The notes beneath the pieces are model-generated. The model was not told where the DNA came from, did not search any database, and saw only the letters and a list, made by a program, of their open reading frames with translations. From NCBI GenBank assembly GCA_017429525.1, contig JAFROT010000022.1, positions 36,027 to 100,026 on the forward strand: DNA of 64,000 nt, written 5' to 3'. This document shows positions 1 through 63,777 of the stretch, piece by piece (the stretch's first letter is position 1; each line of letters begins with the position of its first letter). Origin of the DNA: Bacteroidaceae bacterium. GTDB lineage: Bacteria; Bacteroidota; Bacteroidia; Bacteroidales; Bacteroidaceae. Both the position numbers and the translations under genes were made by a program.

Positions 1-233
1 GTAAGATATATAGGATGAAGCGTCCGCTTTGATTCTAGTCCTTCCAAATTCGCCAAAGTTAAGAACAATCAAGAGTAAAGTACGGATGCTCACAACGAAT
101 GGCGTGGGCTTTTACTCGGATATAGCATGTAAGGCGTTTGGTGATGCCTCGATGAACGTAGACGAAGTAAGTAGTTCATGTTTATCTATTTGTGCCTTTT
201 TGATAAATGATAACTATAAATGACTTTAATGTG

Positions 234-2387
234 ATGAAAACGAACCTATTATTCAAACATTTACGCCATGGGGGAACAATTTCTCATTTTGACCTCCGGT
301 CTTCCTCTTTCACGACTCGGCAAACAGAAAACAAGTTTTCGTTTGCTCTCGCTGCTCCATCGGTTCCATTTTCATTTTTCCATTTGAACCGGGTCGGGGT
401 TAGGCTTCTCCTAGGGCTCCTATTTGCCTTATTTGGGACCATGAGCGCCTTAGCCCAGGAACCATACGCCTCTCTCTCCGACGACGGCAAGACGCTGACG
501 TTCTACTACGACAGCCATAAATCCAATCACACTGGCACCGTCTACAGCCTGTCGTGGAGCAGCAGCCCCGGCTGGGCGGGCACCTACAACAGTCCGAACA
601 AGACGATTACCAAGGTCGTCTTCGACGCGTCGTTCGCCGGTTACAACGGACTGACATCCGCCAAAAACATGTTCGTATATATGGAGGCGCTGACGACCAT
701 CGAGGACATCGTAAACCTGAACACCGCGAACGTCACCGACATGAGCTCTATGTTCTACCACTGCCAGGCCCTGACCGCCCTCGATGTCACTCATTTCAAC
801 ACCGCGAACGTCACCAACATGAACAGAATGTTTGGCAGCTGCCAGGCTCTGACCGCCCTCGATGTCACTCATTTCAACACCGCGAACGTCACCAACATGA
901 GCCAGATGTTCTACTACTGCAAGGCCCTGACTGCCCTCGATGTCACTCATTTCAACACCGCCGCCGTCACCAACATGAGCAGAATGTTTGGCTACTGCGA
1001 GACTCTGACCGCCCTCGACCTCTCCAGCTTCAACACCGCCGCCGTCACCGACATGAGCTATATGTTCACCTACTGCAAGGCCCTGACCAGTCTCAACGTC
1101 TCCAGCTTCAACACCGCGAACGTCACCGACATGTCTGTCATGTTCCAAAATTGCGAGGCCCTGACCGTCCTCGACCTCTCCAGCTTCAACACCGCGAAGG
1201 TCACCAACATGTCGAGTATGTTCTTCTACTGCAAGGCCCTAACCCATCTCGACCTCTCCCGTTTCAATACTGCCGCCGTCACCAACATGAGCTATATGTT
1301 CCAGGACTGCTTCGCCCTGACCAGTCTCGACCTCTCTGGCTTCGACACCAAGAACGTCACTAACATGTCGAGTATGTTCAGAGACTGCTTCGCCCTGTCC
1401 ACCCTCAACCTCTCGAGCTTCAACACCGCGAAGGTCACCAACATGAACTATATGTTCGACAACTGCAGGGTCCTGACCAGCCTCAACCTCTCGAGCTTCA
1501 ACACCGCGAAGGTCACCGATATGAACTATATGTTCAATAGCTGCCAGGCCCTGACCGCCCTCGACCTCTCGAGCTTCAACACCGCCGCCGTCACCAACAT
1601 GAGAAATATGTTCAACAACTGCCAGACCCTGACCGCCCTCGACCTCTCGAGCTTCAACACCGCCGCTGTCACCAATATGAGCAGAATGTTCGACAACTGC
1701 AAGGCCCTGACCGCCCTCGACCTCTCGAGCTTCAACACCGCCGCCGTCACCAACATGAGCAGAATGTTCCACAAATGCGAGGCCCTGACCGCCCTCGACC
1801 TCTCGAGCTTCAACACCGCCGCCGTCACCGACATGAACTTTATGTTCACCTACTGCGTGGCCCTGACCGCCCTCAACGTTTCCCGTTTCAACACCGCCGC
1901 CGTCACCGACATGAGCTATATGTTCCACTACTGCGATGTCCTGACCCGCCTCGACCTCTCCAGTTTCAACACCGCGAAGGTCACTAACATGAACTATATG
2001 TTCACCGGCTGCGGGAAAATGACCACCATCTACGTGGGTAACGGATGGACGACGGATGCCGTCACTCAGTCAACTGAGATGTTCTTATGCTGCGACAAAC
2101 TCGTCGGCGGCAGAGGCACCACCTTTGATGGAGAGCACGTCGATGCCGCCTACGCCCATATCGACGGCGGCACAGTCAATCCAGGCTACTTCTCGGAGAA
2201 GCCCGCGTTCCTGCTGGGTGACGTGAATGGTGACGGACTGGTGACTATTGCTGACGTGACGGCTCTAGTCAACATCATCCTCGGCAAGTCGACGGACTAC
2301 AACACGGCCGTTGTCGATGTGAACAATGACAACGTCATCACCATCGCCGACGTCACGGCACTCGTGAATATAATCTTAGGGAAATAA
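234..2387 (+). CDS. BspA-like leucine-rich repeat surface protein with dockerin-like tail
   Basis: Probable exported adhesin-type protein. From about position 720 to 2030 it is a run of 17 near-identical 26-residue (78-nt) repeats with the pattern NTAxVTxMSxMF..C.ALTxLDLSSF, the BspA/DUF285 type of leucine-rich repeat, plus one decayed copy. The C-terminus (from about 2212) holds two dockerin-like calcium-binding segments (DVNGDGLVTIADV and DVNNDNVITIADV). The ATG at 234 is preferred over the 207 start because it begins MKTN. The hydrophobic export segment (RLLLGLLFALFG...ALAQ) lies unusually far in, about residues 55-75, so a later non-ATG start near 384 is possible. A hairpin at 320-346 lies in that long leader. 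Family call is firm; ligand and attachment are unknown. Confidence 0.85.
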   Translation: MKTNLLFKHLRHGGTISHFDLRSSSFTTRQTENKFSFALAAPSVPFSFFHLNRVGVRLLLGLLFALFGTMSALAQEPYASLSDDGKTLTFYYDSHKSNHTGTVYSLSWSSSPGWAGTYNSPNKTITKVVFDASFAGYNGLTSAKNMFVYMEALTTIEDIVNLNTANVTDMSSMFYHCQALTALDVTHFNTANVTNMNRMFGSCQALTALDVTHFNTANVTNMSQMFYYCKALTALDVTHFNTAAVTNMSRMFGYCETLTALDLSSFNTAAVTDMSYMFTYCKALTSLNVSSFNTANVTDMSVMFQNCEALTVLDLSSFNTAKVTNMSSMFFYCKALTHLDLSRFNTAAVTNMSYMFQDCFALTSLDLSGFDTKNVTNMSSMFRDCFALSTLNLSSFNTAKVTNMNYMFDNCRVLTSLNLSSFNTAKVTDMNYMFNSCQALTALDLSSFNTAAVTNMRNMFNNCQTLTALDLSSFNTAAVTNMSRMFDNCKALTALDLSSFNTAAVTNMSRMFHKCEALTALDLSSFNTAAVTDMNFMFTYCVALTALNVSRFNTAAVTDMSYMFHYCDVLTRLDLSSFNTAKVTNMNYMFTGCGKMTTIYVGNGWTTDAVTQSTEMFLCCDKLVGGRGTTFDGEHVDAAYAHIDGGTVNPGYFSEKPAFLLGDVNGDGLVTIADVTALVNIILGKSTDYNTAVVDVNNDNVITIADVTALVNIILGK

Positions 2388-5240: not shown

Positions 5241-5372
5241 GTCGTTACGACCTTAACGAACGTTCGTTAAAGGCAGCACGTATATTCGCGTCGTCTTGAG
5301 CGAATGGTCGTTACGGGCAACACGTATAGTTGTGTCGCCTTGAGCGAATGGTCGTGTCGCCTTCTGTCATTA
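5241..5372 (+). repeat. 22-nt periodic array A
   Basis: Six units start at 5241, 5263, 5285, 5307, 5329 and 5351, exactly 22 nt apart. Units alternate, giving a 44-nt higher-order repeat: CACGTAT recurs at 5277 and 5321, and GAGCGAATGGTCG at 5298 and 5342. The array lies between convergent genes. Confidence 0.8.
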
Positions 5373-11509: not shown

Positions 11510-14500
11510 ATGAAAAAATATATAGCAACTATCATACTCCTGCTCGGTACGGCTTTCGCAGCTATGGCGCAGCAGGAAGTCACGATTACCGGTGTCGTCA
11601 GCGACGACACGGGTCCCCTGCCCGGTGTCAACGTAACCGTCAAGGACGGTAAAGGCCTCGGCACCATCACCAATGTCAACGGTCAGTACACGATCAAGAT
11701 GCCGCAATACAAGACGCTGGTGTTCTCCTACATGGGCTTCGAGAGCCAGGAGGTCTTCATCAAGGATCAGAAGACGGTCAACGTCACCCTCTCCGAGGCC
11801 AAGGTCAGCGCCATGGACGAGGTCGTTGTCACGGGTATGACGGCCCAGAAGAAACTGACGCTGACGGGCGCCGTCACCAACGTGAAGATGGAAGAGCTGA
11901 AGCACTTCAATACGTCGAACCTCACGAACACCCTCGCCGGTAACGTGGCCGGTGTGCTCGCCTTCCAGAAGTCCGGTCAGCCCGGTAAGAACACTTCGGA
12001 GTTCTGGATCCGCGGTATCTCCACTTTCGGCGCCAGCAACAAGGCTTACATCCTGGTCGACGGCTTCGAGCGCGAGAACCTCGACGACATCAACATCGAG
12101 GATATCGAATCCTTTTCCGTCCTGAAAGACGCCTCTGCCACCGCTATCTACGGTTCGAAGGGCGCTAACGGCGTCGTCCTCATCACGACGAAGCACGGCC
12201 GTGCCGGCAAGGTCGACATCAACGCCAAGTTCGAGACCTCGTACAACACGCGCACCATCACGCCCGAGTTCGTCAGCGGTTTTGACTATGCTAAGTACTT
12301 AAATGAGGCTCGCGTCACCCGCAACCTCGGCGTGCTCTACCAACCCGTCGAGCTCGACATCATCCGCTATGGCCTCGACCCCGACCTCTACCCGAACGTC
12401 GACTGGCAGGACCTCCTCTTGAAGGACGGCGCCATGAGCTACCGTGCCAACCTCAATATCAGCGGCGGTGGCGAGACGGCTCGCTATTACGTCTCGATGG
12501 CCTACACGCAGGACCAAGGTATGTACAAGACCGATAAGACCCTGCGCGAGCGCTACGACACGAATGCCAACTACGACCGCTGGAACTATCGTATGAACGT
12601 CGACGTGGACGTCACGAAGACCACAGTGCTGAAATTTGGCATCAGCGGCAACCTCAACAAGCGCAACAGCCCGGGCATCGGCGACGACAAAGTCTGGGGC
12701 CAGATGTTCGGTTACAACCCGCTCTACACCCCCGTGCTCTACAGCAACGGACTCTTCCCCGCAAAGGGCGTGTTCAACACGAAGGAGGAGAACGGTGTCA
12801 CCACCTACACCCTCGACGAGAACTACATTAACCCGTGGGTCAGCTCCACGCAGACGGGTTACAATACCGAGTGGCAGAACAATATTCAGACGAACATCAC
12901 CCTGGAGCAGGACCTCAAGTTCATCACCAAGGGCCTGAAGTTCACCGGCCGCTTCGGCTACGATACCTACAATAACAATAGTATCCAGCACCACCGCCTG
13001 CCCGCCCTCTACGCCGCTCGTTCGCGTAACACCGAGACCGGCCAGCTCGACTTCCAGCAGGTGCAGTCGATTCAGGACATGACGCAGTCGAGCGCCAACA
13101 GCGGTTCGCGCCGCGAGTTCCTCGACCTGCTCTTGCACTGGGACCGTCAGTTCTGGGACTACCACAACTTCGCCGCCAACGTGAAGTTCACCGAGGATCA
13201 GAACATCTCGACTCAGAATCTGGGCAGCGACATCAAGAACTCCGTCTCGCGCAAGAACAAAGGTCTGGCAGCCCAGTTCACCTACAACTTCGCATCGCGC
13301 TACTTCGCCGACTTCAACTTCGGCTACAACGGCTCTGAGAACTTCGCCGACGGCCACCGCTGGGGCTTCTTCCCCGCCTGGTCAGTAGCCTGGAACGTAG
13401 GCGAGGAGCCTTGGATCAAGAAGAACGTCAAGTGGATTGACATGTTCAAGATCCGCTTCTCCAACGGTCGCGTAGGTTCTGACGCCACGGGCGACAACCG
13501 CTTCCCCTACCTCTACACCCTCGAGGCCAGCGGCAACGGCTACACCTGGGGCCAGAACGGAACCAATAGCTACGGCAGTATCCGCTATCGTCAGGTAGCT
13601 TCGGAATACGTCACGTGGGAAGTCGCTACGAAGAACGACCTCGGTATCGACCTCGTGTTGTTCGACAACCGCTTCTCGCTGACCATGGACTACTTCGACG
13701 AGAAACGTACCGGCATCTTCCAGGAGCGCCGCTTCCTGCCCACCACCGTCGGTCTGGAGTACTGGGCTGTGGATAACAACTGGAACTACCCTAAAGCTAA
13801 TGTCGGCGCTGTCAGTTCGCGCGGTTTCGACGGCAACTTCTCCTACAACGACAAGTTCGGCCAAGTCGGTCTGACCGTTCGCGGCAACATCACCTATAGC
13901 AAGAACAAGATTGAGGAGTACGACGAGGAGAACAACGTCTACCCCTACCAGAACCAGTACGGCTACCGCGTCAATCAGGTCCGCGGCCTCATTGCCGAAG
14001 GTCTGTTCAAGGACTACGACGACATCCGCAACAGCCCGACACAGGAGTTCGGCACCGTGCAGCCCGGTGATATCAAGTACAAGGACGTCAATGGTGACGG
14101 CGTGGTCAACAACGGCGACGTTTGTGCCATCGGTGCTACCGACCGTCCGAGCCTCATCTACGGCCTCGGCGTGAGCGTCACGTGGAAGGGCTTCGATTTC
14201 AACCTCCACCTGCAGGGCGCCGGCAAGAGCACCTTCTCGACCTACGGCAAGTGCGTCTGGGCCTTCAGCGAGAGCCAGTGGGGCAACATCTTCAAGGGCC
14301 AACTCGACAACCGCTGGGTGGACAGCGAGACAGCCGTCAAGCTCGGCATCCCGGGCAACGAAGATCCGAACGCCACCTATCCGCGTCTCAGCTATGGCGG
14401 CAACAGCAACAACGACCGCAACTCCACCTTCTGGCTGCGCGACGGCCGCTACCTGCGCCTGAAGAACCTCGACATCGGTTACACGCTGCCTAAGCATATC

Positions 14501-14665
14501 GTCAACCAGATTCACTTCTCCAACATCCGTGTTTACGTGGCTGCCACCAACCTCTTCTTCCTCCACAAGAAGTTCAGCACGTGGGATCCCGAATCCCTGC
14601 AGCCGCGCGGCGAGGACTATCCGATTACGAAGGCTATCACAGCCGGTTTGCAAGTTAATATCTAA
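11510..14665 (+). CDS. SusC/RagA-type TonB-linked outer membrane transporter
   Basis: Imports oligosaccharides across the outer membrane using TonB energy. The signal peptide ends AAMAQ. A carboxypeptidase-regulatory-like domain (GVVSDDTGPLPGVNVTVKDG) comes first, then a TonB-box-like stretch (AMDEVVVTG), the plug (GNVAGVL, WIRGISTFGASNKAYILVDG, LKDASATAIYGSKGANGVVLI) and the beta barrel ending in an aromatic-poor VNI. At 1051 aa the length is normal for the family. It is followed by susD after 72 nt, the usual pairing. The operon pairs it with GH92 and GH76, which suggests alpha-mannan oligosaccharides as cargo (inference). Confidence 0.96.
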   Translation: MKKYIATIILLLGTAFAAMAQQEVTITGVVSDDTGPLPGVNVTVKDGKGLGTITNVNGQYTIKMPQYKTLVFSYMGFESQEVFIKDQKTVNVTLSEAKVSAMDEVVVTGMTAQKKLTLTGAVTNVKMEELKHFNTSNLTNTLAGNVAGVLAFQKSGQPGKNTSEFWIRGISTFGASNKAYILVDGFERENLDDINIEDIESFSVLKDASATAIYGSKGANGVVLITTKHGRAGKVDINAKFETSYNTRTITPEFVSGFDYAKYLNEARVTRNLGVLYQPVELDIIRYGLDPDLYPNVDWQDLLLKDGAMSYRANLNISGGGETARYYVSMAYTQDQGMYKTDKTLRERYDTNANYDRWNYRMNVDVDVTKTTVLKFGISGNLNKRNSPGIGDDKVWGQMFGYNPLYTPVLYSNGLFPAKGVFNTKEENGVTTYTLDENYINPWVSSTQTGYNTEWQNNIQTNITLEQDLKFITKGLKFTGRFGYDTYNNNSIQHHRLPALYAARSRNTETGQLDFQQVQSIQDMTQSSANSGSRREFLDLLLHWDRQFWDYHNFAANVKFTEDQNISTQNLGSDIKNSVSRKNKGLAAQFTYNFASRYFADFNFGYNGSENFADGHRWGFFPAWSVAWNVGEEPWIKKNVKWIDMFKIRFSNGRVGSDATGDNRFPYLYTLEASGNGYTWGQNGTNSYGSIRYRQVASEYVTWEVATKNDLGIDLVLFDNRFSLTMDYFDEKRTGIFQERRFLPTTVGLEYWAVDNNWNYPKANVGAVSSRGFDGNFSYNDKFGQVGLTVRGNITYSKNKIEEYDEENNVYPYQNQYGYRVNQVRGLIAEGLFKDYDDIRNSPTQEFGTVQPGDIKYKDVNGDGVVNNGDVCAIGATDRPSLIYGLGVSVTWKGFDFNLHLQGAGKSTFSTYGKCVWAFSESQWGNIFKGQLDNRWVDSETAVKLGIPGNEDPNATYPRLSYGGNSNNDRNSTFWLRDGRYLRLKNLDIGYTLPKHIVNQIHFSNIRVYVAATNLFFLHKKFSTWDPESLQPRGEDYPITKAITAGLQVNI

Positions 14666-14666
14666 G

Positions 14667-14809
14667 ACCCCCTCCTCACTCCCCCTTGCAGGGGGAGGGT
14701 GGTTACCTAAAAAAAAGAAATATAACAGTCTAAGAATATGAAAACAAATATGAGCAATATACTAAGGTATATACTCCCCTCCCTACAAGGGAGGGGCAGG
14801 GGGGTGGGT
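14667..14809 (+). repeat. Inverted-repeat pair at the susC/susD junction
   Basis: Arm 1 (14667-14706) begins one base after the susC stop; arm 2 (14767-14809) lies inside the susD signal peptide. The arms are imperfectly inverted copies, and each is itself near-palindromic (CCCTCCCTACAAGGGAGGG in arm 2). The susD ATG at 14738 falls in the loop. Confidence 0.8.
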
Positions 14810-16957
14810 CTGCTCCTGCTGGCCGCTTTCTTTATTGCCTCTTGTGCCGACCTCGACTCCGACAAATACTTCGGCGACCGCAAGACGCTCGAGAGCGTCT
14901 TCACCGACCGCGAACAGGTCGACCAGTGGCTCGCCCACGCCTTCTCGTTCCTCACGGGCTCCAACTTCGAAGTCTGCTCTAAGGGCGGCACGGGCGGTGA
15001 GAATGCAGCCTGGAATCCCTTCTGCTTTGCCGACGACATCTACTACGGCGACCGCGACTATGCCTATGGCGACGCCAAGGACCGCGGCTTCACGTCCTAC
15101 AACACGTTCCGTGAGGGCGGCTACACCGAGGCCGTCGGGCAGGACGCCTGGGTGCGTAGCTACCAGGGTATCTACCAGGCCAGCATCTTCATCAAGAATA
15201 TCGACATGAACACCGACCTCACCGAGGAGGACCGCCTCGACAAGAAGGGTCAGGCCCGCTTCGTCCGCGCTTACTATTATTGGCTGCTCCTGCGCAAGTT
15301 CGGCCCCATTCCCATCATGCCTGATGAGGGCGCCGACTATACGCTCGAGTATGATGACCTCGCGACCCCGCGTTCGACCTACGAGGAGTGCGCCAACTAC
15401 ATCGCCGACGAGATGGTGAAGGCCGCCAACGAGATTTCGCCCCGCTGGACCAACAGGCGTGATGAAGCCAACATCGCACGTCCGACGCGCGGCGCCTGCC
15501 TCGCCACGCGTGCCATCGCGCTGACCTATGCTGCCAGCCCCCTGGCCAACGGTCAGCTCAAGAACGGCCATCACCCGGCCAACGTCACCGACAATATCGC
15601 CAAGCAGCTCCACAACTTCGACGGCACGCCGCTGCTCTCGCTCGACTACGACGAGGCCAAATGGGCGCGCGCCGCTGCTGCCTGCAAGGACGTCATGGAC
15701 CTCGGAGGCTACGAGCTCTACCACGCAGGCTTCAACGCCGACCCCACCGACGGACGGCCCAGGACCGTGGCGCCCGACTACGACCCCGTCTTCTCGGAGA
15801 ACAACTGGCCCAACGGCTGGAAGGACATCGACCCCTATCTCTCCTACCGCGACCTCTTCAACGGCACGGCCAGCGCGGCCGACAACCCTGAACTCATCTT
15901 CACCCGCGGCTCCAATATGAGCATGGGCGACAACGACAATGGCCTCGGCGCCATGGTGGCCCACTCGATGCCCGTCTCCATCAACGGCTGGAACACGCAC
16001 GGCATGACGCAGAAGATGTGCGACACCTATTATATGCGCGACGGCTCGGACGTCCCCGGTATGTATCGCGAGTGGCGGCAGGACGGCGTCGACGGCAACG
16101 ATATGGGCAACAGCCAGGAGCGCGCCACGGGTTGGACCTCACGCAGCGAGATCAACAACGGCGACTATCCCGAGCTCTCGCAGGACCTGCGCGCCTATCC
16201 TGGCATGAACGTCTCCAAGCAGTATGTCCGTCGCGAACCCCGCTTCTATGCCAGCGTAGCCTTCAGCGGCAGCTACTGGGAGCAGTTGCAGAATCCCACT
16301 CAGTCGCAGCGCAACGCTCAGGTATTCTACTATCGTGGTGGTGGTAACGGCTACATTAATGCTTTCTCCTATCTCCGTACGGGTATTGGCATCAAGAAGT
16401 TCTATCATCCCGATGACTACCGCGACGCACAGCATGACTATGGTCATCTTCGCACTAAGTTTGAACCTGCCATCCGTTATGCAGACATCCTGTTGATGTA
16501 CGCAGAATGCCTCAATGAGCTCACCCAGAGCTATACCATCAAGAGCTGGCAGGGCAAGGACATGACCATCAGCCGTAGCGTCGACGAGATGAAGAAGGGC
16601 ATCCAGCCCGTTCGCATCCGTGCCGGCCTGCACGACTACTCGGCCGACGAGTATGCCGACGTCAATGCCTTCCGTGCCAAGGTCAAGCGTGAGCGCATGA
16701 TCGAGTTCATGGGCGAGGGCAAGCGCTACTTCGACCTCCGCCGTTGGATGGACGCCCCCATCGAGGAGAACAAGCGCGTCTACGGCCTCAACGTCTTCCA
16801 GACGGCTGCCAAGCGCGACGAGTTCATGCAGGTCATCCCAGTCTACAACCTCTCGGCCAACTTCAACGACAAGATGTACTTCTGGCCCATCTCTCACACC
16901 GACCTCAAGCGCAACAAGAATCTTGTCCAGAACCCCGGTTGGACCTACAATGACTAA
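14738..16957 (+). CDS. SusD/RagB family glycan-binding lipoprotein
   Basis: Partner lid of the SusC transporter, binding glycans at the cell surface. The lipobox is FIASC (C36). TPR-like helices are seen in the N-terminal half (RFVRAYYYWLLLRKFGPIP, typical of SusD), and the C-terminus has RVKRERMIEFMGEGKRYFDLRRW, a conserved SusD motif. At 739 aa it is longer than most SusD proteins (about 500-650). The stretch of the signal peptide just before the hydrophobic core (LPSLQGRGRGVG) is encoded by a palindromic repeat also found in the next gene. The nucleotide sequence from the ATG for about 73 nt is almost identical to that of the gene at 17049. Confidence 0.95.
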   Translation: MKTNMSNILRYILPSLQGRGRGVGLLLLAAFFIASCADLDSDKYFGDRKTLESVFTDREQVDQWLAHAFSFLTGSNFEVCSKGGTGGENAAWNPFCFADDIYYGDRDYAYGDAKDRGFTSYNTFREGGYTEAVGQDAWVRSYQGIYQASIFIKNIDMNTDLTEEDRLDKKGQARFVRAYYYWLLLRKFGPIPIMPDEGADYTLEYDDLATPRSTYEECANYIADEMVKAANEISPRWTNRRDEANIARPTRGACLATRAIALTYAASPLANGQLKNGHHPANVTDNIAKQLHNFDGTPLLSLDYDEAKWARAAAACKDVMDLGGYELYHAGFNADPTDGRPRTVAPDYDPVFSENNWPNGWKDIDPYLSYRDLFNGTASAADNPELIFTRGSNMSMGDNDNGLGAMVAHSMPVSINGWNTHGMTQKMCDTYYMRDGSDVPGMYREWRQDGVDGNDMGNSQERATGWTSRSEINNGDYPELSQDLRAYPGMNVSKQYVRREPRFYASVAFSGSYWEQLQNPTQSQRNAQVFYYRGGGNGYINAFSYLRTGIGIKKFYHPDDYRDAQHDYGHLRTKFEPAIRYADILLMYAECLNELTQSYTIKSWQGKDMTISRSVDEMKKGIQPVRIRAGLHDYSADEYADVNAFRAKVKRERMIEFMGEGKRYFDLRRWMDAPIEENKRVYGLNVFQTAAKRDEFMQVIPVYNLSANFNDKMYFWPISHTDLKRNKNLVQNPGWTYND

Positions 16958-16961
16958 GGAA

Positions 16962-17120
16962 GCCCCCCTCCTCACTCCCCCTCAAAGGGGGAGGGTGGTC
17001 ACCATTCAAGAATTGAAAACCATACATTCATAAATACAAGATTATAATATGAAAACAAATAAGAGCAATATACTAAGGTATATACTCCCCTCCCTCGCAG
17101 GGAGGGGCAGGGGAGTGGGT
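16962..17120 (+). repeat. Inverted-repeat pair at the susD/next-gene junction
   Basis: Arm 1 (16962-17003) begins four bases after the susD stop; arm 2 (17077-17120) lies in the signal peptide of the gene starting at 17049. Arrangement and sequence repeat those at 14667-14809. Confidence 0.8.
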
Positions 17121-18143
17121 GTTCTTCTACTCCTGCTTGCCATCCCGTTCCTTACGGCCTGCAATGATGAATGGAAGGAGGAGCAGTACCAGCATTTCAT
17201 CAGCTTCAAGGCTCCGCTGAACGACAACGGCGTCACCTCCGTCTACGTCCCCTTCACGCGTCACAACGACGACGGCCAGCCGCTCTACGGCCGCACAGGA
17301 GTCTCGCACTATGAGCTTCCCGTCATCGTCAGCGGTACCACTCACAACGACCGCGACCTCGTCATCCAGTTTGGGCATAGCGACACCCTCGACATCCTTA
17401 ACGTAGAGCGCTTCGGCTCCCCCTCCTATCGCTCGGATATCGTCGACCTCTACTACAAGGACATGAGCCAATTCGCCTCCTATCCTGCCACCCTTAGCAT
17501 CCCTAAGGGGCAGGACGTGGCGTTGCTCAAGATCCAGTTCGACTTCAACGGCATCGACCTCAAAGACAAGTGGGTGCTGCCGATTGAGATCAAGGACGAC
17601 GACAGCTATACGCCCCATCCGCGTAAGAACTACGCCAAGGCCATGCTGCGCGTCTATCCTTACAACGACTACTCGGGCAACTACTCTGCCACCACGCTCA
17701 CCATCACCAATGCCGACGACCCCACGAACGCCACCGGCATGGAGACGGCACGTGGCTACGTCGTCGACGAGAACACCATCTTCTTCTACGCCGGCAACAT
17801 CGATGAAACACGTGTAGACCGCCAGAACTACAAGGTGTTCTTCAAGTTCATCCCCGATGAGAACAACCCCAATATCGGTCATATTGAGCTCTCGTCTGAT
17901 AATGCTGAGAAGAATGGTTTTGTCAATACGGGAAAAGCCTCTTATCGTATCTACGAACAGGCCGACGAGGTGCAGCCGTGGCTCTTGCACCGCTACGTCA
18001 TCATTAGCGGTATCGAGTACAACTACACCGACTACACGTCTGTCGATGCCTACCCCATGGAGTACACCGTCAAGGGTATCCTCACGCTCGAGCGTCAGCT
18101 GAACACCCAGATTCCGAACGAGGACCAGGCGATTCAGTGGTAA
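17049..18143 (+). CDS. DUF1735/DUF4973-like surface lipoprotein
   Basis: Predicted surface glycan-binding lipoprotein (lipobox FLTAC, C38). The N-terminal half after the Cys resembles DUF1735 (YVPFTRHNDDG, ILNVERFG, SIPKGQDVALLKIQFDF, KWVLPIEIKDD), and the C-terminal half resembles the DUF4973-type domain that accompanies SusC/SusD pairs (YSGNYSATTLTI, VIISGIEYNYTDYT). No catalytic motif is seen. It is the third gene after susC in the operon, the usual place for a SusE-like binding protein. The domain names are from memory of similar loci and should be treated as probable. Confidence 0.72.
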   Translation: MKTNKSNILRYILPSLAGRGRGVGVLLLLLAIPFLTACNDEWKEEQYQHFISFKAPLNDNGVTSVYVPFTRHNDDGQPLYGRTGVSHYELPVIVSGTTHNDRDLVIQFGHSDTLDILNVERFGSPSYRSDIVDLYYKDMSQFASYPATLSIPKGQDVALLKIQFDFNGIDLKDKWVLPIEIKDDDSYTPHPRKNYAKAMLRVYPYNDYSGNYSATTLTITNADDPTNATGMETARGYVVDENTIFFYAGNIDETRVDRQNYKVFFKFIPDENNPNIGHIELSSDNAEKNGFVNTGKASYRIYEQADEVQPWLLHRYVIISGIEYNYTDYTSVDAYPMEYTVKGILTLERQLNTQIPNEDQAIQW

Positions 18144-18151
18144 TGTTATTC

Positions 18152-18298
18152 AAGGAAATATAAAATATGAAATATAAGATATATAATATAAGCACAGTTA
18201 TGATTCTTTATCTTTCAAAAACCCGCCACTCCCTTCGTGGCAAACACGTCCTTCTTCTATCATTCTATATTTTATCTTTCATATTTTATATTTCCTTA
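18152..18298 (+). repeat. AT-rich inverted repeat spanning the GH92 start
   Basis: AAGGAAATATAAAATATGAA (from 18152) is matched in reverse complement by 18268-18298, allowing about three mismatches over 30 nt. Arm 1 starts nine bases after the upstream stop, and arm 2 encodes the hydrophobic part of the GH92 signal peptide. Confidence 0.8.
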
Positions 18299-20644
18299 CC
18301 CACCGTCAGCTTTGCTGCCGGTGAGGTAGGTTACGTCTCCCCCTTGGTCGGCACCATGTCCAAGCACTCCCTCTCCACGGGTAACACGTATCCTGCCATC
18401 GCCCTGCCCTGGGGCATGAACTTCTGGACGCCGCAGACGGGGCGCATGGGCGACGGGTGGGCCTACGTCTACACCGAGGACAAGCTCCGTGGCATCAAGC
18501 AGACCCACCAGCCCTCGCCGTGGATCAACGACTACGGTCAGTTTGCCATTATGCCTACCACGCGCACCGTCTTCCGCGAGGACGACCGCGCCAGCTGGTT
18601 CAGCCACAAGGCCGAGACGGCTACACCTTATTATTATAAGGTTTATCTGGCCGACTGGGACGTCACCGCCGAGCTGACGCCCACCGAGCGCGCCGCCATC
18701 ATGCGCCTCACCTATCCCGAGACCTCGGAAGCGCGCGTCGTCATCGACCCCTTCGACGGCGGTTCCTGCCTGCAGATCGACGAGGCGGGGCGCCGCGTCA
18801 TGGGCTATACCACCAAGAACAGCGGCGGCGTGCCCGAAGGTTTCAAGAACTATTTCGTCATCGAATTTTCACACCCCATCACCTTCGCGGGCATCTATGG
18901 CGACAAGCAAGGCGGCGACAAGCTGTTGGAGGACATCGTGATGATGGCCGACAACCACGTCATCGGCGTCGTAGGCTTTCCCACGCTCCGCCGCGGCGAG
19001 CAGGTGACGCTGCGCATCGCATCGTCCTTCATCAGCTACGAGCAGGCCCTGCGCAACCTCGCTGAACTCGGCGACCGCTCCTTCGACGAGGTCTGTGCTG
19101 CCGGTCGCGAGCGCTGGGACGAGGTGCTCGGCCGCATCCGCGTCGACGACGACAACATCGACCACCTGCGCACCTTCTACTCGTGTCTCTATCGCTCCGT
19201 CCTCTTCCCGCGCTCGTTCTTCGAGTACGACGAGAAAGGTGAGCCCGTGCACTACAGTCCTCACACAGGTCAGGTGCTGCCCGGCCGTTATTTCACCGAC
19301 ACCGGTTTCTGGGACACCTTCCGCTGCCTCTTCCCGCTCCTCAACCTCGTCTATCCCGAGATGAGCCTGCAGATGCAGGAGGGCCTCGTCAACTGCTACC
19401 GCGAGAGCGGTTTCCTGCCCGAGTGGGCCAGCCCCGGCCATCGCGGCTGCATGGTCGGCAACAACTCCGCCTCGGTCGTAGCTGACGCCTATCTGAAGTT
19501 AGTGGACAAGTTGACGAGTGGAGAAGTTGACAAGTTGGTTCCTCAAGGCAAGCAACTCGTCAACTCGTCAACTAAAAGCTCGTCATCTAGCTCGTCAACC
19601 CTCCCCTACGACATCGAGACGCTCTGGCAGGCCGTCGTCCATGGCGCCAACGCCGTCCATCCGAAGGTCAGCTCCACAGGTCGCCTCGGCTTCGACTACT
19701 ACAACCGCCTCGGCTACGTCCCCTACGATGTCGACATCCGCGAGAGCGTGGCACGCACGTTGGAGTATGCCTACGACGACTGGTGCATCTACCAGCTTGG
19801 CCGTAAGCTCGGCAAGAAAGAGAAGGAACTCAAGCCCTTCCGCCAGCGCGCCCTCAACTATAAGAACGTCTTCGACCCCGAGACACGCCTGATGCGTGGT
19901 CGCTTGAAGGACGGCCACTTCCAGAGCCCCTTCAACCCGCTGAAGTGGGGCGACGCCTTCACCGAAGGCAACGCCTGGCACTACACCTGGTCGGTCTTCC
20001 ACGACCCCGAGGGCCTCATCCGCCTGATGGGCGGCCGCGACGTCTTCGTCCAGATGCTCGACTCCGTGTTCAACGTGCCGCCCCTCTTCGACGACAGCTA
20101 CTACGGCGGCGTCATCCATGAGATACGCGAGATGCAGATCATGAATATGGGCAATTACGCCCACGGCAATCAGCCCATCCAGCACATGATCTACCTCTAC
20201 GACTGGGCTGCAGAGCCCTGGAAAGCGCAGCAGCGCGTGCGCGAGGTCATGGACCGCTTCTACACCTCCGCCCCCGACGGCTACTGCGGCGACGAGGACA
20301 ACGGCCAGACCTCTGCCTGGTACGTTTTCTCGGCCCTTGGCTTCTATCCCGTCTGTCCCGGTTCGGGCGAGTATGCCCTCGGCACTCCTTATTTCCGCAA
20401 GGTCACCCTCAGCCTGCCCTCAGGCAAGACCCTTGCCCTCGAGGCCGCAGCGTCTGCCGGCACTCCCATCGCTGCCGCACCCTACATCCAGCGCATGACC
20501 CTCAACGGACAGCCCTACGATCGCAACTACTTGCGCCACGAGGACCTCACCGCTGGCGGCACCATCCACTTCGACCTCGGTCCGCAACCCAACAAGTCTC
20601 GCGGCATCAGCCCCGAGGCTGCCCCGTATAGCTTTAGTAGATAA
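18167..20644 (+). CDS. GH92 family alpha-mannosidase-type glycosidase with altered catalytic acid
   Basis: GH92 enzymes are calcium-dependent, inverting exo-alpha-mannosidases. Family marks are GNTYPAIALPWGMNFWTPQTG, TDTGFWDTFR, CMVGNNSASVVADAYLK and GDEDNGQTSAWYVFSALG. The last gives D709, E710 and D711, matching the catalytic-base/calcium region. Where most members have GNEPSHH this one reads GNQPIQH, so the expected general acid Glu is Gln (Q669). Residues 445-480 are an insertion relative to the family, encoded by a repeat (19499-19606). The N-terminus has a long basic region before a hydrophobic segment ending SFAAG; ATG at 18200 is an equally good start and would sit between the two arms of the inverted repeat. 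Numbering here uses 18167. Likely periplasmic or surface; part of the mannan operon. Confidence 0.93.
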   Translation: MKYKIYNISTVMILYLSKTRHSLRGKHVLLLSFYILSFIFYISLPTVSFAAGEVGYVSPLVGTMSKHSLSTGNTYPAIALPWGMNFWTPQTGRMGDGWAYVYTEDKLRGIKQTHQPSPWINDYGQFAIMPTTRTVFREDDRASWFSHKAETATPYYYKVYLADWDVTAELTPTERAAIMRLTYPETSEARVVIDPFDGGSCLQIDEAGRRVMGYTTKNSGGVPEGFKNYFVIEFSHPITFAGIYGDKQGGDKLLEDIVMMADNHVIGVVGFPTLRRGEQVTLRIASSFISYEQALRNLAELGDRSFDEVCAAGRERWDEVLGRIRVDDDNIDHLRTFYSCLYRSVLFPRSFFEYDEKGEPVHYSPHTGQVLPGRYFTDTGFWDTFRCLFPLLNLVYPEMSLQMQEGLVNCYRESGFLPEWASPGHRGCMVGNNSASVVADAYLKLVDKLTSGEVDKLVPQGKQLVNSSTKSSSSSSSTLPYDIETLWQAVVHGANAVHPKVSSTGRLGFDYYNRLGYVPYDVDIRESVARTLEYAYDDWCIYQLGRKLGKKEKELKPFRQRALNYKNVFDPETRLMRGRLKDGHFQSPFNPLKWGDAFTEGNAWHYTWSVFHDPEGLIRLMGGRDVFVQMLDSVFNVPPLFDDSYYGGVIHEIREMQIMNMGNYAHGNQPIQHMIYLYDWAAEPWKAQQRVREVMDRFYTSAPDGYCGDEDNGQTSAWYVFSALGFYPVCPGSGEYALGTPYFRKVTLSLPSGKTLALEAAASAGTPIAAAPYIQRMTLNGQPYDRNYLRHEDLTAGGTIHFDLGPQPNKSRGISPEAAPYSFSR
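19499..19606 (+). repeat. In-frame repeat insertion within the GH92 gene
   Basis: 108 nt with inverted arms (AGTTGACGAGT near 19510, and ACTCGTCAACTCGTCAACT near 19563) encode a 36-residue low-complexity Ser/Lys/Val-rich insert between the family motifs AYLK and YDIETL, where relatives have only two or three residues. Confidence 0.75.
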
Positions 20645-20648
20645 AGAC

Positions 20649-20809
20649 GGCCCTCCCCCTCCCTCTATGGAGGGAGCGATTACCTAACAAGTAATGAAAA
20701 AAAGAGAACAATGAAAAGAATTCTATTCGCATTCATCCTAATATTAACATCAACCTTTCTGTCAGCGCATGTAATCGCTCCCTCCCTACAAGGGAGGGCG
20801 GGGGGAGAG
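20649..20809 (+). repeat. Inverted-repeat pair at the GH92/GH76 junction
   Basis: Arm 1 (20649-20684) begins five bases after the GH92 stop. Arm 2 (20771-20809) lies in the GH76 signal region. GGAGGGAGCGATTACC in arm 1 is the reverse complement of GGTAATCGCTCCCTCC-type sequence in arm 2. The ATG at 20711 is in the loop. Confidence 0.8.
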
Positions 20810-22312
20810 TCATCAAGTGGAGAGCCCTCCCTTCTCCTCCACCGCGCCATCGCCCTGACGGATGCCACGATGCAGAAGTCGTTCGTCGCGAACAGCCTTC
20901 ACATGTACGACACCTACGACACCGCGACGGGGCAGGGCGCTGGCACGGCAGATGTTTGGCCGTACACCGCAGCCATCGAGGCCCATTGCTCCGTCCTCGA
21001 GGCCCTCGAGCAGCTGCGCGACGAGGAGCCCGACCTCTATGCCCAGCACCACGAGCGCTTCGTCATCCGTCTGCGGCAGCTCTACGACAACCTCGCTTAC
21101 TACGCCGGCACCTACCTTCTCAATTCCTACGCGCGTGTGGCGCGCTGGACCATCTACGGCGTGCATCGCGCCGGCACCAAGGGCACAGCCGCCGTCAAGG
21201 GCATCGAGAATGTCTACGACGATCAGATGTGGATCTGTCGCGAACTCATACGCGCCTATCGCCTCACCGGCTACGACGGCTACCTCAAGGAAGCCACCAT
21301 GCTCGCCAACTACTGCATCGACGGCTGGGACTGCTGCCTCGATGGCGCCGGCAACGAGTATGGAGGCATCAGCTGGGGACCGGGCTACAACAGCAAGCAC
21401 TCCTGCTCCAACGCCCCCCTGATCCAGCCCCTCGTCTGGCTCGCCGACATCTATCGTGCCGACGATGAGCCCGAGGACCTACGCTACTACTACATCCAGC
21501 CCGATGGCACCCGAGCCAGCGTCATGCGTCGCCATTCCGACGTCTATCTTGAGATGGCCCGCAAGATCTACGCGTGGCAGAAGGAGAAGCTCCTCAATCG
21601 CACCACGGGCGTCTACTGGGACATGTGCGGAGCCGTACAAGGCGAGATCAAGTACGTCAAGGTCGGGCGCGACACCTATCGCGACCACATCGACCTGAAC
21701 GGCCCTTCAGGTACCGCCTACACCTACAACAGCGGCACCATGCTCGCGGGCGCTGCCGAGCTCTACCGCGCGACCGCTGAGGCTGCCTATCTCGACGACC
21801 TCAATGCCCTCGCCCGCAGCTGCTTCAGCCGCTTCACCAGCAGCAAGCGCATCGATGGCATAGTCTATCGCCTATGGCCCACCGATGACGTCGCCACTAG
21901 CGGTTTCAACACTTGGTTCGACAATGTCCTCATGCGCGCCTACGTCGACGCCGCGCCCTACAACACTTCTCCCACGCCGACCGCCCTCAACTCCTTCCGG
22001 CTCAACCTCAACTACGGCTGGGAGCACCACCTGCGTGACGGCCTACTCCCCATCCATCTCATCGACGGTTGGGGCGACGCCACCGTCACCAAGGGCTTCC
22101 ATCAGATGGCCTTCGCCTCAGAACTCGCCATGCTTGCCGTCTGGCAGCAGCGCCAAGCCCAGCCCGATGCCGTCCCGCAGCTTCCCGCCGATGCCTCCGT
22201 CAGCCCCTCCGCCACCGAAGGCCAGTTCTTCGACCTTCAAGGGCGGGTCGCCACCCGTCCCCTCCGCCGTGGCCTCTACGTCCTCGCCGGCCACAAGATA
22301 CAGCTGCAGTGA
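20711..22312 (+). CDS. GH76 endo-alpha-1,6-mannanase, secreted, sorting-like C-terminus
   Basis: GH76 enzymes cut the alpha-1,6-mannan backbone inside the chain. The signal peptide is FILILTSTFLSAHV. The family's adjacent Asp pair is in VYDDQMW (D170, D171), followed by RAYRLTGYDGYL, GGISWGPG and GTAYTYNSGTMLAGAAELYR, all GH76-like. The mature N-terminus (IAPSLQGRAGGES) is encoded by a palindromic repeat. The last 30 residues (FFDLQGRVATRP...GLYVLAGHKI) look like the C-terminal sorting tail common in this lineage, consistent with type IX export. Last gene of the operon; it is followed by a long repeat hairpin and a convergent dehydrogenase. Confidence 0.92.
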   Translation: MKRILFAFILILTSTFLSAHVIAPSLQGRAGGESSSGEPSLLLHRAIALTDATMQKSFVANSLHMYDTYDTATGQGAGTADVWPYTAAIEAHCSVLEALEQLRDEEPDLYAQHHERFVIRLRQLYDNLAYYAGTYLLNSYARVARWTIYGVHRAGTKGTAAVKGIENVYDDQMWICRELIRAYRLTGYDGYLKEATMLANYCIDGWDCCLDGAGNEYGGISWGPGYNSKHSCSNAPLIQPLVWLADIYRADDEPEDLRYYYIQPDGTRASVMRRHSDVYLEMARKIYAWQKEKLLNRTTGVYWDMCGAVQGEIKYVKVGRDTYRDHIDLNGPSGTAYTYNSGTMLAGAAELYRATAEAAYLDDLNALARSCFSRFTSSKRIDGIVYRLWPTDDVATSGFNTWFDNVLMRAYVDAAPYNTSPTPTALNSFRLNLNYGWEHHLRDGLLPIHLIDGWGDATVTKGFHQMAFASELAMLAVWQQRQAQPDAVPQLPADASVSPSATEGQFFDLQGRVATRPLRRGLYVLAGHKIQLQ

Positions 22313-22331: not shown

Positions 22332-22490
22332 GAATCTCGCTTCGCTCGGAATGAAGAATACAAGTTACCTGTTTAGGATGAAGAATGAAGAATGACGAAT
22401 GAAGGATGAAGAATCCAATTTACCTTCAAGACCTGAAAGTAATTCTTATTTTTCATTCTTCATTCTTCATTCTTCATCATTCATCCTTCC
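22332..22490 (+). repeat. Repeat hairpin between GH76 and alcohol dehydrogenase
   Basis: GAAGAATGAAGAATGACGAA (from 22380) is the approximate reverse complement of the TTCATTCTTCATTCTTCATC run at 22454-22480. The 28-nt start (22332-22359, GAATCTCGCTTCGCTCGG...) recurs at 23715, and 22415-22464 recurs inverted at 23731-23781. It may act as a terminator for both convergent genes. Confidence 0.75.
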
Positions 22491-22494
22491 CCCT

Positions 22495-23673
22495 TCACTC
22501 CATGCACATCTTGAAGATCTGCTCCACGTCCTGCTGCTGCAGCGGCTTGAAGCCGGGGAGCGTGCCGCCGCCGACGGCCTTTCGGGCCATGAGGGCGAAG
22601 TGCGTCTCGTCGATGCCCACCTCAGGGAAGGTGCGCTTCAGCTGGAGCGTGTTGAAGAAGAAATCGCTCAGGCGCCCGATGGCCTCGTGCGCGATGTCCA
22701 TGGGAGCCAGCGTCGGGTCGATGCTGAACACGTTCGTGCCCATCTGCACGTACTTCGACACCGTTGTCTCGTCCAGGCAGTAGTCCATCCAGCGGGGCGT
22801 CAGGATGGCCAGCCCCAGGCCGTGCGTGATGTCGTAGATGGCCGACAGCTCGTGCTCCATCGGATGGCAGCTCCACGCTTTCTGCCTGCCGCCGTTGACG
22901 AAGCCGTTGATGGCCCACGACGAGGCCCACATCAGGTTGGCACGCGCCTCGTAGTTGTCCGGCTCGCGCATCGCGATGGGTGCGAAGCGGATAATCGTCT
23001 TCATCAGCCCCTCCATGAAGCAGTCCAGCATGTACAGGTCCTCGTTCATGTTGAAGTAGACCTCGATGATGTGCGACATCATGTCGGCCGCGCCGCAAGC
23101 CGTCTGATAGGCCGACACCGTGAACGTGTTGGTCGGGTCGAGGAACGACGCCTTGGGCAGCAAGGCAGGCGCCAGACGCCCTATCTTGTCCTGCGTCTCG
23201 GGATTGCTGATGACGGCTGCGCAGTCCATCTCAGAGCCCGTGGCCGCGAGCGTGAGGATGCTGACGATGGGCAGCGCCCGCTCGATGGGAGCCCATTTCT
23301 TCAGGTCCAGGAAGTCCCACGGGTCGTGGTCCACGCAGGCGCCTGCCGCCATGAACTTCGTCGCGTCGATCGTCGAGCCGCCGCCCACGGCCAGCAGCAC
23401 GTCGATCTGATGGTCCTTGCACAGCTGAGCACCGCGGCGCACAGAGTCGATGCGCGGGTTGGGCTCGATGCCCGAGAGTTCAAACAGTTCCAGCCCCGCC
23501 TCTTTGATTGCCTCCACCACGCGGTCGTAGAGGCCCATGCGCTTGATGGAGCCGCCGCCGTAGGTCATCAGCACGCGCGTGCCGTATTTCCTGAGCTCCG
23601 AGCCCAGGTGCTTCAGTTGGTCGCGTCCGAAGTACACACGGACGGGGATGTCGTAGATAAAGTCGTTGATCAT
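22495..23673 (-). CDS. Iron-containing alcohol dehydrogenase (butanol dehydrogenase-like)
   Basis: Cytoplasmic group III, iron-dependent alcohol dehydrogenase that would interconvert an aldehyde and an alcohol with NAD(P)H. The nucleotide-binding GGGSTIDATK motif, TLAATGSEMD, and the metal-ligand motifs GAADMMSHIIE, HPMEHEL and DITHGLGLA are all present; the length (392 aa) is typical. The sequence is closest in style to the BdhA/YqhD group rather than to FucO, but the substrate cannot be fixed. Monocistronic with its own -7 box. Its 5' and 3' flanks carry a matching inverted repeat of about 50 nt. Confidence 0.88.
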   Translation of the reverse strand: MINDFIYDIPVRVYFGRDQLKHLGSELRKYGTRVLMTYGGGSIKRMGLYDRVVEAIKEAGLELFELSGIEPNPRIDSVRRGAQLCKDHQIDVLLAVGGGSTIDATKFMAAGACVDHDPWDFLDLKKWAPIERALPIVSILTLAATGSEMDCAAVISNPETQDKIGRLAPALLPKASFLDPTNTFTVSAYQTACGAADMMSHIIEVYFNMNEDLYMLDCFMEGLMKTIIRFAPIAMREPDNYEARANLMWASSWAINGFVNGGRQKAWSCHPMEHELSAIYDITHGLGLAILTPRWMDYCLDETTVSKYVQMGTNVFSIDPTLAPMDIAHEAIGRLSDFFFNTLQLKRTFPEVGIDETHFALMARKAVGGGTLPGFKPLQQQDVEQIFKMCME

Positions 23674-25256: not shown

Positions 25257-25558
25257 CAAGTCTGCCTGCTCCTGCCCGCATGCCTGCTCGTCCCTGCCAA
25301 CGCGACCATTCGTCCCTGCTCCTACATTGAGCTGCAAGTACCAGCTTATCCGGGCAAAAACGCCAATTCATAAGGTCGAAATAGGTGGACCACCATGGTG
25401 ATTCACCCTACGCGACCGTTCGCATCGCCCTACGCGACCGTTCGCATCGCCCTGCGCGACCGTTCGCATCACCCTACGCGACCGTTCGTATCGCCCTGCG
25501 CGACCATTCGCATCACCCTGCGCGACCGTTCAGTATCCTCTTGCGCGACGCACAAGCC
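25257..25558 (-). repeat. 22-nt periodic array C
   Basis: Clean units start at 25411, 25433, 25455, 25477, 25499 and 25521, each beginning CGCGACC. Diverged units at 25257, 25279 and 25301 keep the same phase (25301 is exactly five periods before 25411). On the minus strand the unit core is GCGTAGGGCGATGCGAAC, which resembles that of the array near 50.2 kb. Frames through it shift because 22 is not a multiple of three. Confidence 0.85.
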
Positions 25559-50021: not shown

Positions 50022-50190
50022 AAAGTGGAAGAGCTACAGAGGAAATGCCATCGAATCCTTGGCTGCATGAAATAAAGGCCAACCTTTGCAGCAACCCAAG
50101 GAGAATGTCTTGCCCAGGAGCGAGGGCAACCTTTGTCGTGAGTAAGACTACAAGTAGTCAACTAAAATCGACTAAAACTCACGTTTAGTC

Positions 50191-50573: not shown

Positions 50574-50800
50574 GCTGATGACAGATGACAGATGACAGTT
50601 TCTTTATTGTCATCCTCATTCGTCTTTTTGGGTGTCTTGATACAAGAGTATATATTCTACTAAATATATAATATTATATATATATATTTAAGTATATTTA
50701 ATAATATATATAAGTATATTTAATAATCTATATAATTATTCATCTCTTCTTGCCTGCTTGGGGGCATTATAGAAACTGTCATCTGTCATCTGTCATCGGC
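50574..50800. mobile_element. MITE-like AT-rich element with terminal inverted repeats
   Basis: GATGACAGATGACAGATGAC, then AGTTTCT (50576-50603), is matched in reverse by AGAAACTGTCATCTGTCATC (50770-50789) and the bases after it. The 160-bp interior is almost pure A/T with ATATAT runs. No coding capacity; a non-autonomous insertion or regulatory cruciform are both possible. Confidence 0.6.
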
Positions 50801-63689: not shown

Positions 63690-63777
63690 CACGTCTATAT
63701 GTGTGGCGCTTCACGTCTATATGTGTGGCGCTTCACGTCTATATGTGTAGCCCTCCACGTCTATATGTGTGGGGTGT
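63690..63777 (-). repeat. 22-nt periodic array E
   Basis: Four units start at 63690, 63712, 63734 and 63756, each beginning CACGTCTATATGTGT. On the minus strand the unit includes ACACATATAGACGTGAAG, close to the GACGTG/ACATAT words of array D. Confidence 0.9.

What the first reader, a model, noticed from the sequence alone, without database searches (positions are those of the whole stretch)
14667..20809. Every gene junction from susC to GH76 carries an inverted-repeat pair enclosing a start codon
At four successive junctions (14667-14809, 16962-17120, 18152-18298, 20649-20809) one arm starts within nine bases of the upstream stop and the other lies in the next gene's signal-peptide region. 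In three cases the start codon is in the loop; in the GH92 case ATG 18200 is in the loop and ATG 18167 is in the arm. Three pairs are GC-rich and one is AT-rich, so position is kept but sequence is not. In mRNA these would fold into long hairpins that could mask starts, set the protein ratio between SusC, SusD and enzymes, or protect processed ends. I know of no described system of this kind.
Basis: partly seen in the sequence, partly recalled or inferred. Interest (0 to 1): 0.88.

Follow-up and report, generated by a model that had tools for sequence, protein, structure and literature searches.

The report
Paired palindromic repeats bracketing gene starts
The four inverted-repeat pairs are real, but they belong to a class of short repeats scattered in matched, opposite-facing pairs through this rumen bacterium's genome, around gene starts, after gene ends and even inside genes, rather than a switch special to this sugar-use operon.

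Summary
All four pairs exist at the stated places: two as long stems (GH92, GH76), two imperfect. They are not special to the susC-GH76 operon. In 845.5 kb of the same genome I found 60 such pairs (0 in one resampled control). Most lie between codirectional or convergent genes; 12 sit in open frame inside genes that read as MiaB-like, MutS2, kinases, TolC-like. Two classes stand out: GC-rich palindromes (33 of 34 inverted neighbours face the same way) and heptamer arrays (purine-rich arm first, 13 of 13). Orthologues show arms bracketing native sequence, and unrelated families at the same bracket position in different species, so 'position kept, sequence not' holds. The regulatory reading is weak: start regions are as open as average, and at J1 and J2 the arms do not co-vary. 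Best explanation: REPIN/BIME-like paired palindromes expanded within this genus, possibly served by a divergent RAYT-like HUH protein encoded in the nqr operon, where three junctions carry pairs with a shared half-loop. Unusual: bracketing of native DNA, in-frame copies, exchange of families, and co-orientation with transcription (16 versus 1, 13 undecided), which leaves room for an RNA-level role.

The parts
14666..14700 (+). J1 first arm: GC palindrome (subfamily with CTCCCCC..GGGGGAG) directly after the SusC stop, followed by GGTTACC
   Evidence: profile hit; sequence
14770..14813 (-). J1 second arm: GC palindrome of another subfamily, read in SusD as ILPSLQGRGRGVG between n- and h-region of the lipoprotein signal (regions by eye)
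16959..16996 (+). J2 first arm, after SusD stop
17081..17125 (-). J2 second arm, read as ILPSLAGRGRGVG in the DUF4973 lipoprotein
18152..18187 (+). J3 first arm: AT-rich array of period 7 (identity 0.72 at lag 7); contains ATG 18167
18262..18297 (-). J3 second arm, read as LSFIFYISL (hydrophobic part of the GH92 signal, by eye)
20652..20680 (+). J4 first arm: GC palindrome after GH92 stop
20775..20814 (-). J4 second arm, read as APSLQGRAGGES in GH76 just after the hydrophobic segment (by eye)
22375..22487 (.). Heptamer pair (GAATGAA-like / TTCATTC-like) between the convergent ends of GH76 and the minus-strand gene 22495-23673; same class as J3, no start codon involved
50574..50800 (.). Another heptamer pair in the window, GATGACAGATGACAG.. 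/ ..CTGTCATCTGTCATC, outside called genes
11510..22312 (+). Operon carrying the four pairs: SusC, SusD, DUF4973 lipoprotein, GH92, GH76

Best explanation
The four pairs are copies of a dispersed, lineage-expanded class of short repeats that come as matched, opposite-facing pairs ('brackets') around a stretch of DNA, mostly 20-135 bp long, that in several cases is clearly native. Shown: pairs occur across the sampled genome; each class has a strongly preferred facing; they favour places where a short insertion is tolerated (just after stops, short intercistronic gaps, signal-peptide regions, linkers); inside genes the frame stays open; different families occupy the same bracket positions in different species at two places (GH92 start, TolC-like linker). 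Inferred: the GC-palindrome class is a REPIN/BIME-like element whose spread depends on the divergent RAYT-like HUH protein of this genome, and the arms are kept matched by copying of one arm from the other (replication template switching) or by joint replacement. At the operon junctions the first arm fills the gap after the stop and the second was accommodated in the fast-evolving signal region, so start codons end up in the loop as a result of where insertion is tolerated. Hairpins in the mRNA follow from this; whether they were later put to use is not shown.
For: Genome sample: 60 pairs in 845.5 kb, 0 in one resampling. Facing: of 42 neighbouring GC-arm hits closer than 300 bp, 33 tails-outward, 1 tails-inward, 8 same-strand (some of them overlapping or adjacent hits); 17 single arms of 93 merged hits. 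Heptamer pairs: 13 of 13 purine arm first. Location: inside genes 12 (44.8 expected at random), codirectional gaps 27 (8.9), convergent gaps 15 (2.3), divergent 5 (3.0); within 30 nt of a stop 22 of 39 against a random fraction of 0.16. Bracketing of native sequence: four kinase orthologues without arms (L161-L164) keep the strand (ITIT or similar) that lies between the arms in G000; TolC-like orthologues. Same place, other family or subfamily: TolC-like linker (heptamer pair in G000, GC pairs in G015, G017 and others), MutS2 linker, lipoprotein-GH92 junction. Lineage limits: the core CCCCTCCCNNNAGGGAGGGG has 58 strand-counted hits in G000, is present in 40 of 121 genomes of the genus including G000, and in 2 of the 294 other genomes drawn from the order; reversed-pattern control 0. 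RAYT: NCBIfam REP_Tyr_transpos matches 10 of 10 members of alignment A1; the gene lies next to nqrF, and three nqr junctions carry pairs that share 37-49 nt of loop; about 40 nt of that half-loop recur at one further place in G000 (contig C31) and three in G014, as expected of a REPIN-like unit.
Against: The RAYT-like match is below the curated cut-off (40.7 of 80 bits), and no GC arm touches that gene (nearest arm C5:58541, about 1.5 kb from the gene start, nqrF between). RAYT-like homologues also occur in core-lacking genomes (G359, G379), and two core-rich genomes (G017, G018) gave no Y1 match. Heptamer arms are not palindromes, so a RAYT would not explain them. A native loop is hard to reconcile with insertion of one unit, while the shared half-loop of the nqr subfamily speaks for one; both kinds of loop exist. 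In kinases the pattern is not uniform: G015 lacks the strand and has a different degenerate pair, and in G012 repeats follow the strand. In MiaB and MutS2 the loop lies in linkers that cannot be aligned, so nativeness is not shown there. Co-orientation with transcription (16 to 1) is not expected of neutral elements in intercistronic gaps.
Confidence: 0.6

Rival explanations
1. mRNA hairpins that regulate translation or stability at each junction and so set the ratio of SusC, SusD and enzymes.
For: All four fold better than shuffles. The asymmetric inner motif GGTTACCTTTCAAGAATTG lies on the 5' arm side in 16 of 17 decidable pairs that are inside genes or between codirectional genes (13 more undecidable). 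Arms match their partner better than a swapped orthologous arm at J3 (29 of 30), MutS2 (11 of 12), TolC-like (10 of 12). A pair begins within 30 nt of a stop in 22 of 39 cases.
Against: Start regions are no less open than average. J1 and J2 arms do not co-vary (10 of 20, 2 of 6) and in the window are of different subfamilies. By the ungapped criterion only 11 of 329 codirectional junctions in the sample are bracketed, 1 of 24 in the window (the profile adds J1, J2, J4). Relatives with the same operon lack them at many junctions. Pairs occur inside genes and between convergent genes.
Confidence: 0.15
2. Replication template switching alone: one arm arrives or expands by slippage, and its inverted partner is copied from it nearby; the same process later re-matches the arms. 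No transposase is needed.
For: Would explain native loops, matched arms, and why unrelated families (GC palindromes, heptamers) share the architecture. Template switching is described as creating and maintaining hairpins (PMC8794818; passages read). Apical loops of paired arms are identical in 9 of 24 decidable pairs, 2.8 expected by shuffling.
Against: Does not by itself explain the fixed facing (33 to 1; 13 of 13), the shared half-loops, or the spread of each family through one genus.
Confidence: 0.25
3. Mobile 5'-end cassettes: first arm, leader, start codon and second arm move together and replace gene starts.
For: J1 and J2 share 86 nt at 90% including the start; about 42 nt of that loop recur in G017, G015 and G018 at starts of this operon (places matched by my reading); three nqr loops share 37-49 nt, and about 40 nt recur elsewhere.
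Against: In a 61-genome search the J1 loop gave strong matches (E below 1e-6) only in this operon of G000, G017, G015, G018 and at one place in G066. Of 33 GC loops in the sample only four pairs of loops match over more than 30 nt: the two window loops, C5_59438/62608 (nqr), C10_85224/86833 and C5_85880/87445. The kinase and TolC-like loops carry host-gene residues.
Confidence: 0.1
4. Invertible DNA (invertons) flipping the start codon segment.
For: Inverted repeats of suitable size and spacing.
Against: The pair-bearing orthologues read at these junctions (among L050-L057) have the start codon facing forward; the families share no arm sequence; many pairs have no gene start in the loop. Reads that could show both states were not available.
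Confidence: 0.03

Closest known systems
REPINs / BIMEs mobilised by RAYT (TnpA-REP) proteins
   Same: Short palindromes in inverted doublets, spacer less conserved than arms, compensatory changes (PMC3116915, passages); in general one full-length tnpA-REP gene per REP type (PMC6006769, passages). Here: 33 of 34 inverted neighbours in one facing, a RAYT-like gene, and a subfamily with a shared half-loop next to it.
   Different: REPIN doublets are described as lying in extragenic space; here 12 of 60 pairs are inside genes, several loops hold native sequence and loops run from 20 to about 300 bp, heptamer arrays without palindromic arms show the same architecture, and the outer end reads AGACCC rather than the GTAG or CGTC tags named in the title of PMC3733652 (listing only).
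Rickettsia palindromic elements (RPE)
   Same: Palindromic repeats in frame inside unrelated genes, in several families (PMC10969869, passages).
   Different: RPEs are described as units of about 150 bp; here two separated arms bracket host codons, and most copies are intergenic. The original RPE papers were not read; one look-up was not held.
Bacterial MITEs, including BrickBuilt of Porphyromonas gingivalis
   Same: Inverted terminal repeats, non-autonomous; BrickBuilt is in the same order of bacteria (order recalled; PMC4596501, listing only).
   Different: No generally conserved interior; I did not search for a transposon with the same ends.
Heptamer repeats (STRR of cyanobacteria; TAACTGA repeats of Beggiatoaceae)
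   Same: Unit of seven, intergenic (PMC4679880, listing only; STRR recalled).
   Different: Those are described as direct repeats; here arrays come as inverted matched pairs with many different heptamers.

Membership tests
REPIN / RAYT system | Short palindromic unit organised as inverted doublets | tested here: met
   33 '+-', 1 '-+', 5 '--', 3 '++' of 42 neighbours under 300 bp; 17 singles
REPIN / RAYT system | Extragenic location | tested here: not met
   12 of 60 pairs inside called genes, frame open, though far fewer than the 44.8 expected at random
REPIN / RAYT system | A RAYT (HUH, Y1) gene in the genome | tested here: inconclusive
   C5:55958-57079, HxH and YxxDNP motifs invariant in A1; NF047646 E 2e-10 but 40.7 bits against cut-off 80; Y1_Tnp 21.1 bits against 23
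REPIN / RAYT system | RAYT gene flanked by its REPs | tested here: inconclusive
   Three loop-sharing pairs at nqr junctions beside it, nearest arm about 1.5 kb away; none adjacent
REPIN / RAYT system | Mobility shown by transposition intermediates | not testable with these tools
   No reads
Rickettsia palindromic elements | In-frame palindromic insert in unrelated genes | tested here: met
   Genes reading as MiaB-like, MutS2, kinases, IspG-like, TolC-like (names are my reading)
Rickettsia palindromic elements | One compact unit with a conserved peptide | tested here: not met
   Two arms around host residues in the kinase and TolC-like genes; loops mostly not alike
Invertons | Both orientations of the loop observed | tested here: inconclusive
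   One orientation in the pair-bearing orthologues read; no reads
Translation-masking mRNA hairpins | Start region less accessible than usual | tested here: not met
   0.54-0.77 against 0.54 +/- 0.15 (predicted folding of 170-nt stretches only)

The most novel reading that the evidence does not exclude
A general process in this genus turns unrelated repeat families into matched inverted arms around the same native segments, re-matches or swaps the families over time, and does so in register with transcription. If so, gene starts and protein linkers are repeatedly re-bracketed by new sequence, giving a standing source of new signal-peptide and linker sequence and of long mRNA stems, without a classical transposon unit.
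Probability: 0.3. Interest if true: 0.85.

Novelty: new variant of a known kind. Interest (0 to 1): 0.6.

Why it matters
REPINs and Rickettsia palindromic elements are known cases of short palindromes living in bacterial genomes, one outside and one inside genes. Here one genus shows both, with arms that bracket host DNA and with interchangeable sequence families. That makes the open question of how inverted doublets are born (as a unit, or one arm copied from the other) testable on a dense tree of rumen genomes. It also warns that N-terminal signal regions and linkers in these bacteria are partly made of repeat sequence, which affects annotation, start calling and expression design in polysaccharide-use operons.

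Tried and rejected
Ungapped inverted-repeat search missed J1 and J2; a profile of the GC arm was needed. Cassette mobility of the J1 loop: 61 genomes searched, strong matches almost only in the same operon; rejected as the general rule. Invertible DNA: rejected for lack of any flipped orthologue among those read. Start masking: tested and not supported. RAYT presence as a predictor of richness: 22 genomes, no clean split. Literature: ten searches; their listings show no description of paired repeats of this kind in Bacteroidales. The library lacks most subscription papers, so this is weak evidence of absence.

Sampling limits: the 845.5-kb sample is 26% of a 3.3-Mb assembly of 86% estimated completeness, and its contigs (C2, C5, C8, C10, C15, part of C40) were chosen because they held hits to a GC-arm pattern, so 7.1 pairs per 100 kb may be inflated. 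Contig starts not chosen for elements, from four genus mates chosen for richness, gave 6.5; stretches of G014 and G381 chosen partly around cores gave 12.3. Genes in the sample come from my own codon-usage caller, so starts are approximate and 'inside' depends on it. The resampling control was run once. Of 18 named relatives, J1 and J2 were scored in 18, J3 in 14 and J4 in 10; the rest lacked the next gene, ended early, or had more than 420 bp in between. AT pairs in L057 and L059 and three GC pairs in TolC-like orthologues (L240, L244, L250) were read by eye. For the MutS2 arm test 10 of the 30 fetched loci were used, own included (1 without anchor, 2 with one arm, 3 with none); for the TolC-like set 19 of 24 (8 without anchor, 2 with one arm). 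The 33 '+-' pairs include a few weak profile hits without a clear palindrome. In one search the motif was read from the same data, and some pairs are local copies of each other, so independent cases are fewer than 17.
Full report
What is there. The window is part of a 3.3-Mb, 56-contig genome; orthologous operons come from assemblies titled Bacteroidaceae, Bacteroidales, Prevotellaceae or Prevotella, many from rumen samples. The operon encodes SusC, SusD, a DUF4973 lipoprotein, GH92 and GH76. Each of its four junctions has two arms facing each other with a start codon between them. J1, J2 and J4 use a GC-rich palindrome of about 40 nt, roughly AGACCC(T/A)CCCCC..CCCTCCC-nnn-GGGAGGG; J3 uses an AT-rich array with a period of seven. 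J1 and J2 mix two subfamilies. The second arm is translated: ILPSLQGRGRGVG in SusD, ILPSLAGRGRGVG in the lipoprotein, LSFIFYISL in GH92, APSLQGRAGGES in GH76.

How common. In 845.5 kb of the genome I found 60 pairs with 15-250 bp loops and none in one first-order resampling. Control stretches gave 1.9 (three genomes of the same family, other genera, 160 kb), 0.8 (other families, 120 kb) and 1.7 (core-lacking genus mates, 115 kb) pairs per 100 kb; four core-rich genus mates gave 6.5 (260 kb of contig starts). The sample itself was not random (see Tried and rejected). The GC core occurs in 40 of 121 genomes of the genus (G000 included) but in only 2 of 294 other genomes drawn from the order, with 0 control hits.

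Rules of the pairs. GC arms: 93 merged hits; of 42 neighbours closer than 300 bp 33 face each other with AGACCC outward, 1 faces the other way, 8 are on the same strand; 17 hits are single. Heptamer pairs: 13 of the 60, all with the purine-rich arm first. Pairs avoid coding sequence (12 inside genes, 44.8 expected) and favour codirectional (27 against 8.9) and convergent gaps (15 against 2.3); 22 of 39 begin within 30 nt of a stop, against a random fraction of 0.16. Many GC pairs carry an asymmetric inner motif, GGTTACCTTTCAAGAATTG: among 30 pairs inside genes or in codirectional gaps, 16 have it beside the 5' arm, 1 beside the 3' arm, 13 are undecidable. The motif was read from the same data and some pairs are local copies, so independent cases are fewer.

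Inside genes. Twelve pairs lie in open frame inside genes that read, by my eye, as MiaB-like, MutS2, three histidine kinases, IspG-like, TolC-like, TamB-like and others. Orthologues in the genus show what the arms did. In one kinase, four orthologues without arms (L161-L164) keep a strand (ITIT or similar) between VES/LES and ITDNG or TVTDNG; in G000 one arm precedes and one follows that strand, so the arms bracket native codons. G015 and G012 depart from this pattern. In the TolC-like protein the linker holds a heptamer pair in G000 and GC pairs by profile in G015, G017 and two variant members (L245, L256), with three more by eye, around a similar native strand, while L239, L241, L242 and L247 show none. 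In MutS2 four of ten loci examined, own included, have a full pair, in more than one subfamily; that linker, and the one in MiaB, cannot be aligned well enough to call the loop native.

The operon in relatives. By the GC profile: J1, full pair in the window and 4 of 18 relatives, one arm in 2, none in 12. J2: full pair in the window and 2 of 18, one arm in 3, none in 13. J3: GC pair in 6 of 14, and AT pairs in the window and, by eye, L057. J4: GC pair in the window and 1 of 10, one arm in 2, an AT pair by eye in L059. In L049 and L050 the GH92 frame opens upstream of the lipoprotein stop and no pair is present (my reading).

Do the arms co-vary? I compared each first arm with its own second arm and with second arms from orthologues. 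Own was better in 29 of 30 comparisons at J3, 11 of 12 in MutS2 and 10 of 12 in the TolC-like gene, but only in 10 of 20 at J1 and 2 of 6 at J2. Apical loops, which an arm's own hairpin does not constrain, are identical within 9 of 24 decidable pairs against 2.8 expected; 1 of 10,000 shuffles reached 9. Arms thus look matched when young, or re-matched by copying, and drift apart at J1 and J2.

RNA. The four junctions fold well (z -3.7 to -9.6), yet the start regions are predicted to be as open as elsewhere (0.54-0.77; 250 random starts 0.54 +/- 0.15). Masking is not supported; effects on stability or processing remain possible.

A possible mobiliser. The search of the genome for Y1_Tnp found one protein (C5:55958-57079). 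With nine homologues from the genus it has invariant HxH and YxxDNP motifs. All ten match NCBIfam REP_Tyr_transpos (E 2e-10 for G000, below the curated cut-off). It follows nqrF, and the junctions before nqrB, nqrE and nqrF carry GC pairs sharing 37-49 nt of loop at about 96-97%; about 40 nt of it recur at 90-95% at one place on contig C31 of G000 and three in G014 (nqr names are my reading). REPIN work reports such clusters beside RAYT genes (PMC3116915; PMC6006769; passages read). But no GC arm touches the gene, and homologues occur in core-lacking genomes, so the link is a lead. The shared half-loop also means that this subfamily may move as a unit, unlike the brackets in the kinase and TolC-like genes.

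Judgement. The pairs are best seen as a REPIN/BIME-like class that also enters genes, as Rickettsia palindromic elements do (PMC10969869, passages), with three unusual traits: bracketing of native DNA, exchange of unrelated families at one site, and co-orientation with transcription. How pairs form is not shown. Template switching (PMC8794818, passages) would explain matched arms and native loops; it does not explain the fixed facing.

Noticed in passing
window 207-2387: ORF with a 78-nt (26-residue) repeat in 16 listed copies of a 300-nt reference, possibly leucine-rich-repeat-like.
   Followed up: no
window 25381-25553, 50182-50313, 63692-63779, 5276-5349: Intergenic-looking arrays with 22-nt (or 44-nt) spacing, e.g. 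TATATGCGTAGTGCTGAGCGAA, different sequences at different places; recalls BrickBuilt units.
   Followed up: no
L097:793-1911 (-), own genome C5:55958-57079: Divergent RAYT-like HUH protein of 373 aa with a C-terminal extension (non-significant DprA resemblance, E 0.7), located after nqrF.
   Followed up: partly
own genome C10:95472, C15:15680, C5:191640, C5:226296: Another small inverted pair, GTTTTCCAACCGGTTGGAAAAC-like twice with a 22-nt loop, at four places in the sample.
   Followed up: no
window 14735-14820 and 17046-17131: SusD and lipoprotein gene starts are 90% identical over 86 nt, so neighbouring signal regions in this operon exchange or duplicate.
   Followed up: partly
L279:15337-15492 (G359): A very long GC pair (score 44) in a genome that lacks the usual core, with outer GAAGCCTC.. 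ends: a further subfamily.
   Followed up: no
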